Assembly: GCF_032854445.1 (NCBI RefSeq)
Contig: NC_088306.1
Span: 14,007,386 to 14,071,385 of the forward strand
Direction of reading: 5' to 3'
From: Liolophura sinensis
Lineage: Eukaryota > Mollusca > Polyplacophora > Chitonida > Chitonidae
DNA length: 64,000 nt
The notes under the pieces are model-generated. The model did no database searches. It saw only the letters and a program-made list of their open reading frames with translations, and was not told where the DNA came from. Position numbers and translations under genes: made by a program. Shown piece after piece: positions 38,301 to 41,300 of this stretch; the stretch's first letter is position 1, and each line of letters opens with the position of its first letter.

Positions 38301-41300
38301 AATGAAAAGCGACAGCATTTTTTGTGGGATTTAGCCAACTGTTAAAGTATAACTAAAACAACCGGTGATTGCAATAATGCTACTTAACTCATTCGATACC
38401 GGGAGCGCATCTATGCGCTCAGAACTAATATCCACATGTACACAAGAACGATTGAAAATATCCATTCAAACAAGCCACTGAGTATTCGACTACATATATA
38501 ACAATCTGCTCATCTTACCTTAGAATCTCTGAGTTCTGAAAAGGTATCGACGATGATACCGAAGATGATGTTGAGACCAATGGTGGTGACCAGGATGAAA
38601 AATGTGACATTGTAAATCGCCAGGACCAGATGGTAGCCGAACGGCTGGTTTGACACCTCTTCGATAAGGTACTAAAACAGTCATATCAGATATTCACTGG
38701 TTTATGCAATATTTTATTTTAAACATTTTCAGTATGTGTATCTTGATACCCTCAGTATGGATGTCACTCTGTGTAGATTCGACTAGTTGAACAACTATAT
38801 GACTGCTCTATTTTGTATGCCGCGTTCAAAATCGCCAAGTATTCTTCATTTTCAACCCAAACGTTCCACGAGTTTATTTGTTGATGATGCCGAGTGCGGC
38901 CGACTCGAATCGAAAATGGCTGTTATTTATTTGATTTTATTTATTCGATCGGTGTTTTACGCCGTACTCAAGAATATTTCACTTATACGGAGGCGGCCAG
39001 CATTATGGTGGGAGGAAACCGGGAAGAGCCCGGAGGAAACCCAAGACCATCCGCAGGTTGCTGGAAGACCTTCCCACTTACGGGATCATATTACACATGA
39101 TTACACGCTGTGTCCCTGAACATGTAGAAAGTCATTGGATCGATTGATTTCCAAGATGAAAGCTCGGATGATGTCTTTTCCGACATTGCTTTTTGTGGTA
39201 GATGTATTTCTAGAAAACTGCAAATAGCAGCCGTTTGAATTGGGTAGCAAAATTATGGGAGATTTTTGTTATCTTACTGTTTTGAAGTTTCCTCTAGGTC
39301 ACTTAGTTTGACGGCCATATTGGATTTCGAGCAAAACTATTAAACATTTTTTTTGAAATAAAATGTAGAGTATGCATGTAGATTGGATTATTGATCAATA
39401 CTGAGTTTTCGAGTTACGTCATTACGATAACAGCGTGACTTCCAACCGTCTGCATGGTCCATATATAGCAGTGCAGTAACAGCTTCAACCGCAGGGGGTT
39501 GTCACGGTTTGGTTCCCTGACTTATCTGGCGTATCTTGAAAGCTGATGGCGCCATCTGACGTCATACTTACATATAGACGCACTTACATTGTATGTGTTT
39601 TCCACTAGGCCGTGGTGAATAATGGTAATGAAGCACTCGTACATCCGCCCACAGTATCGCCCACTAGCCGTGTTGTACAACTCTCTGTAGAAAGCGAAGC
39701 TGATCAGGGCGTAGATATAGAAAAAGATCAATCCCAAGATGGCTACCATGATTAGAGACAAACCTGAAAATACCCGCAGAATAAACAACATGAGGCTTTA
39801 TTGTTGGTACAGTGCATCTGAATCAAAAACGATTAACGACGCGCACGATGCAGGCAACTTACGTTTTCAACGCATTGTACCCAGAGACAAAAGAGTGTTC
39901 ATTGATGTAAAACAATCTGTTGTCACAATATTGTGCTTATATGGACAAATGTGGATACTATAACGCGCAAAGTTTTTTAAAAAAATATTGTGCCCGAAAA
40001 CAAAATTAAATAATAATGTGCATAATACAACCTGCACGAACAATGCTTAATCAACCTGCAACATCCCGGTTTACGCAGTGGTTTTTGTAGTACACAAAAC
40101 TACAGAACAGAGATTATTACGTAACACCAGTTTTGACTTGAGTCAAAACTTAAAATATGTTTTTAAAGCTTTCTTTCAAACAATGTAAATTAAAATTTTG
40201 ACCACCTCATCAATGTTATGTTAAGACGAATGTGTGAAAATTTAAACTTATAAAACCAAAAACTAAGCATTGTGACAACGTTTTAAATTTTGACATAAGT
40301 CAGAAATGTCTTTGTGTAATCGCAACATCAAGAAATAGACTTTATTTGGCTTATGCAGTTTTAAAATGTTTGATTGTGATATTTATTTGCCCTTACCGTT
40401 TTTGGTGACAGCCCCAATCACTCTGCTCAGAAGCTGGTTCATTGAGGCAATGTGCAACAAGTGGAACGCGAAGAAGTAGCCATAGAAAGCCGTGCCCAAT
40501 GCGGAGAATACCAGGAACGTCTGAAGGACACAAGGAGGAAAAACACAATGACTATGGCAATAGGCCATATACAATGGCAAAGCAGGACAAGCAATTTATC
40601 TGTGAAGCGAGGCCGTGGAAGACGTTTTGTATGTGTAGCTGTAGAGATATATTACATTCTGAAGTGACTGTTTCGATCTTTTTATATCTTTATATGTATG
40701 TAATATCATTACCGGCGCCATGTTAACGTATTTCATAGTTTACTGTTAAGTTGCTTGTTATTTTATATCTACAGCCATGTACGAGATTCTCAGTTGTTTA
40801 GTTTTAACCACCTTTTCAAATCGTGTAAATGTTACATGCATAAATGAACGGAAGGGAGATAACTGTGTCGTTCTCTATAAACTCACAATGTAGTACGCTG
40901 TTCTGAAGCTGAGTAGTTTGACCTCCAGGTGGGATTCTCGGTCGTCATCCTGCTTCATCCACGGGGAGTTGTAATCTTCTGGAACACCGCGGATACTGAG
41001 GCACAACATATGGTTGTTTTATCATTCAACGGAATTTTCCACTTATATTTATTTATTTGATTGATGTTTTACGCCGTCTTCAAGAAAATTTTACTTATAT
41101 ACGACGGTTGACGGTTTCATCAATTTATTTATTTGTTTGATTGGTTTGATTTATTTACTTATTTGATTGGTGTTTTACGCCATACTCAAGAATATTTCAC
41201 TTATACGACGGCGACCAGCATTATGGTGGGAGGAAACCGGGCAGAGCCAGGGGAAAACCCACGACCATCCGCAGGTTGCAGGCAGACCTTCCCACGTACG

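What the first reader, a model, noticed from the sequence alone, without database searches (positions are those of the whole stretch)
38519..39763. IP3R-like channel with the GGGVGD selectivity filter replaced
Seen: exon 25 ends with pore helix [10 protein letters not shown] then VENTYN, and exon 26 begins [12 protein letters not shown]. From HGL to the conserved YxxxFF of S6 the spacing is 31 residues, the same as in vertebrate IP3 receptors (from memory), yet RSGGGVGD is replaced by VENTYNYL. S5, the S6 gate and the zinc-site tail are otherwise conserved and the frame is intact across about 30 exons, so this is not a pseudogene. Inference: altered permeation, or a subunit that works only in mixed tetramers.
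Basis: partly seen in the sequence, partly recalled or inferred. Interest (0 to 1): 0.87.

Follow-up and report, generated by a model that had tools for sequence, protein, structure and literature searches.

The report
Calcium-release channel subfamily with altered filter
This animal gene encodes a relative of the channels that let calcium out of cell stores, but the short stretch thought to select ions has been rewritten in it and, differently, in its two closest relatives in the same genome, so it may pass ions differently.

Summary
Exons 39763-39588 (S5, pore helix) and 38671-38519 (S6) join in frame to read [22 protein letters not shown]...[15 protein letters not shown]. There is no GGGxGD, and the 917-bp intron between them encodes none. 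Eleven exons of my model (44144-36062) splice into one open frame of 481 residues.

The new point is context. The same 609-Mb genome has an ordinary IP3 receptor (C7, GLRNGGGIGD), a ryanodine receptor (C6, GVRAGGGIGD) and two sisters of the window gene (C9, C5) that lack GGGxGD too: GLIGDLFE and GLIGDMFE, cut by an intron at the same place. So the loss marks a three-gene subfamily, and the window gene differs from its sisters at the remaining GD as well. MIR, RIH, RIH_assoc and Ion_trans domains, S6 and the zinc site are present. The IP3-contact motif TTGR is absent in all three genes.

Best reading: IP3R-B-type subunits (a family lost in vertebrates), not gated by IP3, with non-canonical permeation. 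Mixed tetramers are possible and untested. No expression data and no orthologue from another species were available. New variant of a known kind.

The parts
44026..44144 (-). exon of the pre-channel linker ([27 protein letters not shown]); 5' end of the exon chosen by me
   Evidence: 56% to C5 peptide over 27 aa; aligns with PDB IP3R1 2181-2268 region together with next exon; splice sites and frame
43430..43599 (-). exon before S1 ([20 protein letters not shown]...)
   Evidence: 64% to C5 peptide over 55 aa, E 4e-20
42664..42771 (-). S1 exon ([25 protein letters not shown])
   Evidence: weak match to C5 S1 peptide, 17 aa, E 0.01; phases fit both neighbours
41628..41780 (-). S2 exon ([24 protein letters not shown])
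   Evidence: 54% to C5 over 28 aa, E 1.7e-7
40887..40995 (-). S3 exon
   Evidence: 52% to C5 over 23 aa, E 6e-4
40397..40520 (-). S4 and S4-S5 linker exon ([28 protein letters not shown])
   Evidence: alignment with C9, C5, C7; PDB RyR and IP3R matches
39588..39763 (-). S5, short luminal turret, pore helix and altered filter, ending GLVENTYN
38672..39587 (-). intron inside the pore loop; no GGGxGD in any sense frame; carries a dispersed repeat at about 38908-39090 (44 other copies listed in the genome)
38519..38671 (-). post-filter loop and S6 ([23 protein letters not shown])
37896..37973 (-). zinc-site exon, first half ([14 protein letters not shown])
36657..36776 (-). zinc-site exon, second half (HVKREH) and C-terminal domain with DYT
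36062..36196 (-). tail exon ([44 protein letters not shown]); gene continues past it
   Evidence: 57% to C9 tail over 44 aa, E 3e-13
47347..48560 (-). RIH_assoc domain exons (span; exon ends not all verified), including residues facing the Ca2+ site
   Evidence: PF08454 hit on C12; 77.9 bits on the pasted draft; PDB IP3R1 alignment

Best explanation
The gene is an IP3R/RyR-superfamily channel subunit of the IP3R-B kind, one of three sister genes in this genome. Shown: superfamily domain order, 11 phase-compatible exons, conserved S6 and zinc site, no GGGxGD in any of the three genes, no TTGR IP3-contact motif in any of the three. Inferred: it forms a tetrameric intracellular cation channel that does not answer to IP3 and is opened by cytosolic Ca2+ and/or partner proteins. 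Its pore helix leads straight into a filter of another make-up: GLIGD(L/M)FE in the sisters, GLVENTYN here, where the Gly-Asp pair is Glu-Asn. I expect it still to pass cations (a Glu ring at the filter, further Glu after it) but with conductance and Ca2+ preference unlike IP3R-A and RyR, and unlike its own sisters.
For: Pore exons and splice sites. Five IP3R/RyR genes in the genome, of which the two canonical ones keep GGGIGD and the three sisters do not. The three sisters form one group in the unrooted tree, 99.6 SH-aLRT / 100 UFBoot (FastTree 0.997). Pfam over cut-off: RIH_assoc 77.9, Ion_trans 35.6, MIR 43.1, RYDR_ITPR 31.0 bits (pasted exon drafts). beta-trefoil aligned with PDB IP3R1 235-356, E 1e-5, with TTGR replaced; the sisters read VHFRIRVMDQH and VHFRVRVMDQH at that place. 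Ca2+-site positions largely kept: D for E at LLCENHN, E at LTEYCQG, T at EYTG; their role is recalled. S6 26/31 identical to each sister. An IP3RB subfamily, lost in vertebrates and duplicated in leech, is described in PMC7992859 (section read).
Against: No IP3R-B sequence from any other species could be compared, so the name rests on absence of IP3 contacts, presence of three groups and recall of the literature. No expression evidence. The pore loop of the window gene is the fastest-changing part (P-loop versus rest p = 0.003, filter alone p = 0.045) and its branch is about 2.5 times as long as each sister's (0.49 against 0.20 and 0.19), which relaxed constraint would also give. A flatworm IP3R-like channel is reported to keep GGGXGD (PMC3194816 passage). 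PF08709, the first N-terminal domain, was not found on C12, C9 or C5 (9 matches, all on C7 and C6). Alzayady et al. 2015, as recalled, found no IP3 binding and no Ca2+ release by the Capsaspora IP3R-B.
Confidence: 0.5

Rival explanations
1. The window gene encodes a pore-modifying subunit that conducts only, or is conductive at all only, in mixed tetramers with the C9 or C5 products, as polycystin-1-type subunits do beside PKD2 (analogy recalled).
For: The sisters keep GLIGD and the window gene does not, while S6, zinc site and tail, which carry assembly contacts, are conserved. Three sister genes exist in one genome.
Against: Nothing tested here bears on assembly or on co-expression. Homotetramers are not excluded.
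Confidence: 0.25
2. The protein is a non-conducting member: a scaffold or dominant-negative subunit at the ER.
For: Loss of both GGGxGD and the sisters' GD; pore loop diverged more than the rest. Paramecium CRC-VI channels have practically no filter similarity and are still made and localised (PMC3213138 passages).
Against: S6 including the gate residues is the most conserved part, 26/31, which is hard to explain if nothing flows.
Confidence: 0.14
3. The gene is decaying: an unexpressed or relaxed copy whose pore has begun to drift.
For: Longest branch of the three; pore loop enriched for changes; an N gap and a tandem 4.2-kb duplication upstream.
Against: Eleven exons with canonical splice sites and no stop; 9-11 synonymous against few amino-acid changes in S6.
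Confidence: 0.07
4. The altered filter is an annotation artefact: a missed alternative exon or an assembly error.
For: No transcript data were available.
Against: Strong donor and acceptor in phase 0 on both sides; no GGGxGD in the intron and no second pore exon in the window; the sisters use the same splice point and also lack GGGxGD.
Confidence: 0.04

Closest known systems
IP3R-B (IP3RB) subfamily, e.g. leech ip3rb1/ip3rb2 (PMC7992859)
   Same: IP3R/RyR superfamily group apart from IP3R-A and RyR, absent from vertebrates, duplicated in a lophotrochozoan; no IP3 contacts here, in line with the recalled lack of IP3 binding by Capsaspora IP3R-B
   Different: Its filter sequence is not given in the passages I saw, so whether GLIGD or VENTYN is typical of IP3R-B is unknown
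IP3 receptor, IP3R-A (own genome C7; PDB ITPR1-3)
   Same: MIR, RIH, RIH_assoc, Ion_trans; zinc tail; 31 residues from GL to FF
   Different: IP3R-A has GGG(V/I)GD; PDB IP3R1 has TTGR; both missing here. Long luminal turret in IP3R-A, short here
Ryanodine receptor (own genome C6; PDB RyR1)
   Same: Short turret, FxELRD after S6, best PDB hits of the window pore (E 2e-23); pore-loop intron at GV+6 codons+1 nt against GL+6 codons here
   Different: RyR has GGGIGD and 30 residues to FF; RyR-specific repeats not looked for
Paramecium CRC channels and oomycete ITPRs
   Same: Family members with variant filters (GGGLG(G/S) in oomycetes; no filter similarity in CRC-VI), passages in PMC7399828 and PMC3213138
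   Different: Protists; the sources call the motif conserved in metazoans
Polycystin/PKD2-type filters (LGD, PMC7399828 passage)
   Same: The sisters' GLIGD reads like a short xGD filter directly after the pore helix
   Different: No PKD domain hit; RIH and MIR domains place the gene with IP3R/RyR

Membership tests
IP3R/RyR superfamily | RIH_assoc, RIH, MIR and Ion_trans domains | tested here: met
   four Pfam families over cut-off on pasted exon drafts; RIH_assoc hit on C12 in the genome search
IP3R/RyR superfamily | CxxC...HxxxxH zinc site after S6 | tested here: met
   columns invariant in 4 of 4 sequences
IP3R-A (IP3-gated receptor) | GGG(V/I)GD filter | tested here: not met
   present in own C7 gene
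IP3R-A (IP3-gated receptor) | TTGR and other IP3 contacts in the binding core | tested here: not met
   TTGR absent in window gene, C9, C5; the alpha-domain contacts were only looked at by eye. Contact role recalled
IP3R-A (IP3-gated receptor) | Ins145_P3_rec N-terminal domain (PF08709) | tested here: inconclusive
   9 matches, all on C7 (5) and C6 (4), none on C12; exon-wise search can miss diverged short exons
RyR | GGGIGD filter | tested here: not met
   present in own C6 gene
RyR | SPRY and RyR repeats, about 5000 residues | not tested
   no search made for them
IP3R-B | groups with IP3R-B proteins of other species | not testable with these tools
   no eukaryote reference besides PDB; viral and prokaryote collections gave no relative
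IP3R-B | group apart from IP3R-A and RyR | tested here: met
   three genes split from IP3R and RyR with 99.6/100 in a 7-sequence unrooted tree
PKD2/TRP | polycystin or TRP domains outside the pore | tested here: not met
   no such Pfam hit at E 0.1 on the drafts

The most novel reading that the evidence does not exclude
An animal lineage has turned IP3R-B-type channels into a three-gene family whose pore no longer uses the GGGxGD filter at all: two subunits with a short polycystin-like GLIGD filter and a third, the window gene, with a VENTYN filter that sets permeation in mixed or single-type tetramers, giving IP3-insensitive store channels with new ion preference.
Probability: 0.25. Interest if true: 0.85.

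Novelty: new variant of a known kind. Interest (0 to 1): 0.62.

Why it matters
The GGG(V/I)GD filter is described as conserved in metazoan IP3 and ryanodine receptors (PMC3213138, PMC7399828 passages). One animal genome with three related genes that lack it, beside two that keep it, is a natural experiment on how this filter works and on what the little-studied IP3R-B family does. Leech ip3rb2 marks touch neurons (PMC7992859), so an IP3R-B channel with another pore could matter for sensory Ca2+ signalling. I cannot say that the filter change is unreported: the main IP3R-B paper (Alzayady et al. 2015) was not held.

Tried and rejected
Alternative in-frame exon with GGGxGD: looked for in the intron and the window, none seen. 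Second copy of the locus: the DNA search listed 45 matches, one being the window itself and 44 being a dispersed repeat inside the intron; only 40 of 6257 candidates were scored. Orthologues in other collections: viral contigs, 237 pattern stretches, 0 confirmed; genome contigs, 49 stretches, 0 confirmed. Filter alignment is not settled: MAFFT default puts a 2-residue gap, L-INS-i a 5-residue gap that matches the sisters' IGD with IGD of GGGIGD, and the equal spacing allows no gap. dS was saturated or undefined for several segments, so I use synonymous counts only. A 33-column RyR tail is missing in the PDB RyR1 row of the tree because the printed alignment ended there. Structure prediction was not run: its rule takes proteins that the DNA gives letter for letter, and a spliced protein is not that. 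The PF01365 genome search did not complete; MIR and RIH were tested instead.

Seen: PMC7992859 passages and one section; passages of PMC7399828, PMC3213138, PMC3194816, PMC8301844, PMC7016017, PMC7789530; outline and abstract of PMC13362341. Alzayady 2015 is recalled only.

Full report
What is there. On the minus strand of the window an IP3R/RyR-type gene runs from beyond the right end of the window down to about 36 kb. The two exons named in the finding are real: 39763-39588 and 38671-38519, with canonical acceptors and donors, both joined in phase 0. Read together they give [76 protein letters not shown]. The intron of 917 bp has no GGG or GxGD in its sense frames, and no second pore exon showed among the 40 best tblastn matches of five pore peptides to the window. 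Eleven exons from 44144 to 36062 have compatible phases and give 481 residues without a stop. I did not verify the other exons or the count of about 30.

Domains. Pasted exon drafts of the gene, including the part beyond the window (loci L009-L012), match RIH_assoc (77.9 bits), Ion_trans (35.6), MIR (43.1) and RYDR_ITPR (31.0), each over the Pfam cut-off. Ins145_P3_rec was not found on C12; the nine genome matches lie on C7 (5) and C6 (4).

Relatives in the same genome. A search with the pore protein gave eight matches: two exons each on C12, C9 and C5, and two on C7, of which the second (E 5) is chance. RIH_assoc gave eight: C7 two, C12, C5 and C9 one each, C6 three. A RyR query found the C6 pore exons at 71-79% identity. 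Thus there are five genes: an IP3 receptor on C7 with NQGLRNGGGIGD, a ryanodine receptor on C6 with TGVRAGGGIG|GDEIE, and three sisters. The sisters read RYGLIGDLFE|VMRAHP (C9), RFGLIGDMFE|EMKIHE (C5) and [16 protein letters not shown] (window), with the intron at the same codon. None of the three has GGGxGD. C9 and C5 are 73% identical to each other over S4 to the tail, the window gene 53% and C7 33% identical to C9. In an unrooted tree of seven sequences the three sisters are split from IP3R and RyR with 99.6/100, and C9 with C5 from the rest with 91.9/82.

How the pore changed. Identity of the window gene to C9 is 14/26 in S5, 4/14 in the pore helix, 2/8 in the filter, 2/18 after it, 26/31 in S6 and 36/69 beyond; C9 and C5 share 7/8 in the filter. 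At sites where C9 and C5 agree, the window gene agrees at 2 of 7 in the filter against 103 of 152 elsewhere (p = 0.045) and at 8 of 22 in the whole P-loop against 97 of 137 (p = 0.003). In S6 the codons differ from C9 and C5 at 11 and 9 synonymous places. So the pore loop is the part that moved, while the gate helix is held. Which residue of VENTYN stands where Asp of GGGxGD stood is open, since three alignments disagree (and the ungapped one). From GL to FF there are 31 residues in the window gene, C9, C5, C7 and PDB ITPR2 and 30 in the RyRs.

Ligands. In the beta-trefoil that in IP3R1 carries TTGR (role recalled), the window gene reads VHLRLRAVDQSNPK, C9 VHFRIRVMDQHKPR (its first V restored from the codon split by the intron, by analogy with C5) and C5 VHFRVRVMDQHRPK. 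So IP3 binding of the ordinary kind is unlikely in all three. At the places of the Ca2+-activation site (recalled from IP3R3 and RyR1 structures) the window gene has D for E in MCDGQN (aligned with LLCENHN), E in LNEFTSG (aligned with LTEYCQG) and T in DYTA. I infer gating by Ca2+ or partners rather than by IP3.

Comparison with what is known. PMC7992859 (section 10 read) describes an IP3RB subfamily, inferred for the bilaterian ancestor, lost in vertebrates, with two genes in the leech Helobdella, one marking touch neurons of Hirudo. The three sisters fit that description, but no IP3R-B sequence could be compared. PMC3213138 and PMC7399828 (passages) call GGG(V/I)GD conserved in metazoan receptors; variants are known in Paramecium and oomycetes, with Paramecium CRC-VI showing practically no similarity there. 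PMC3194816 (passages) reports GGGXGD in parasite homologues including flatworm ones. That counts against a lineage-wide loss, though it may concern IP3R-A.

Verdict. The fact that three sister genes lack the filter is stronger and more useful than the single-gene oddity. Steps shown: sequence, exons, paralogues, grouping, missing motifs. Steps inferred: IP3R-B membership, IP3-insensitivity, Ca2+ gating, altered permeation, tetramer make-up.

Noticed in passing
window 47747-48442: A 33-bp minisatellite of 21.2 copies whose first unit is the 3' end of an RIH_assoc exon with its splice donor (ATACAG|GTACTG). The unit is 11 codons and many copies carry CAG|GT, so alternative donors would add 11 residues each beside the Ca2+-site residue.
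   Followed up: partly
L011, about positions 674 and 4860 (C12:14,092,059 and 14,096,245): A tandem duplication of about 4.19 kb upstream of the window, repeating an exon of the IP3-binding-core region (SRKNELYIAKHIPFFQTQ), beside a run of 200 N: real exon duplication or assembly artefact.
   Followed up: no
L049/L046 and window 39588: The RyR pore-loop intron sits at GV + 6 codons + 1 nt, that of the three sisters at GL + 6 codons, that of IP3R-A at GL + 16 codons: a hint of RyR kinship.
   Followed up: partly
window about 38908-39090: A dispersed repeat in the pore intron, 71-95% identical to 44 other places listed across the genome.
   Followed up: no
window about 11938-16322, minus strand: Kelch-motif exons (three ORF pieces over the Kelch_1 cut-off).
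   Followed up: partly
window 12822-14896: Long open frames made of a short tandem repeat ([15 protein letters not shown]), seen.
   Followed up: no
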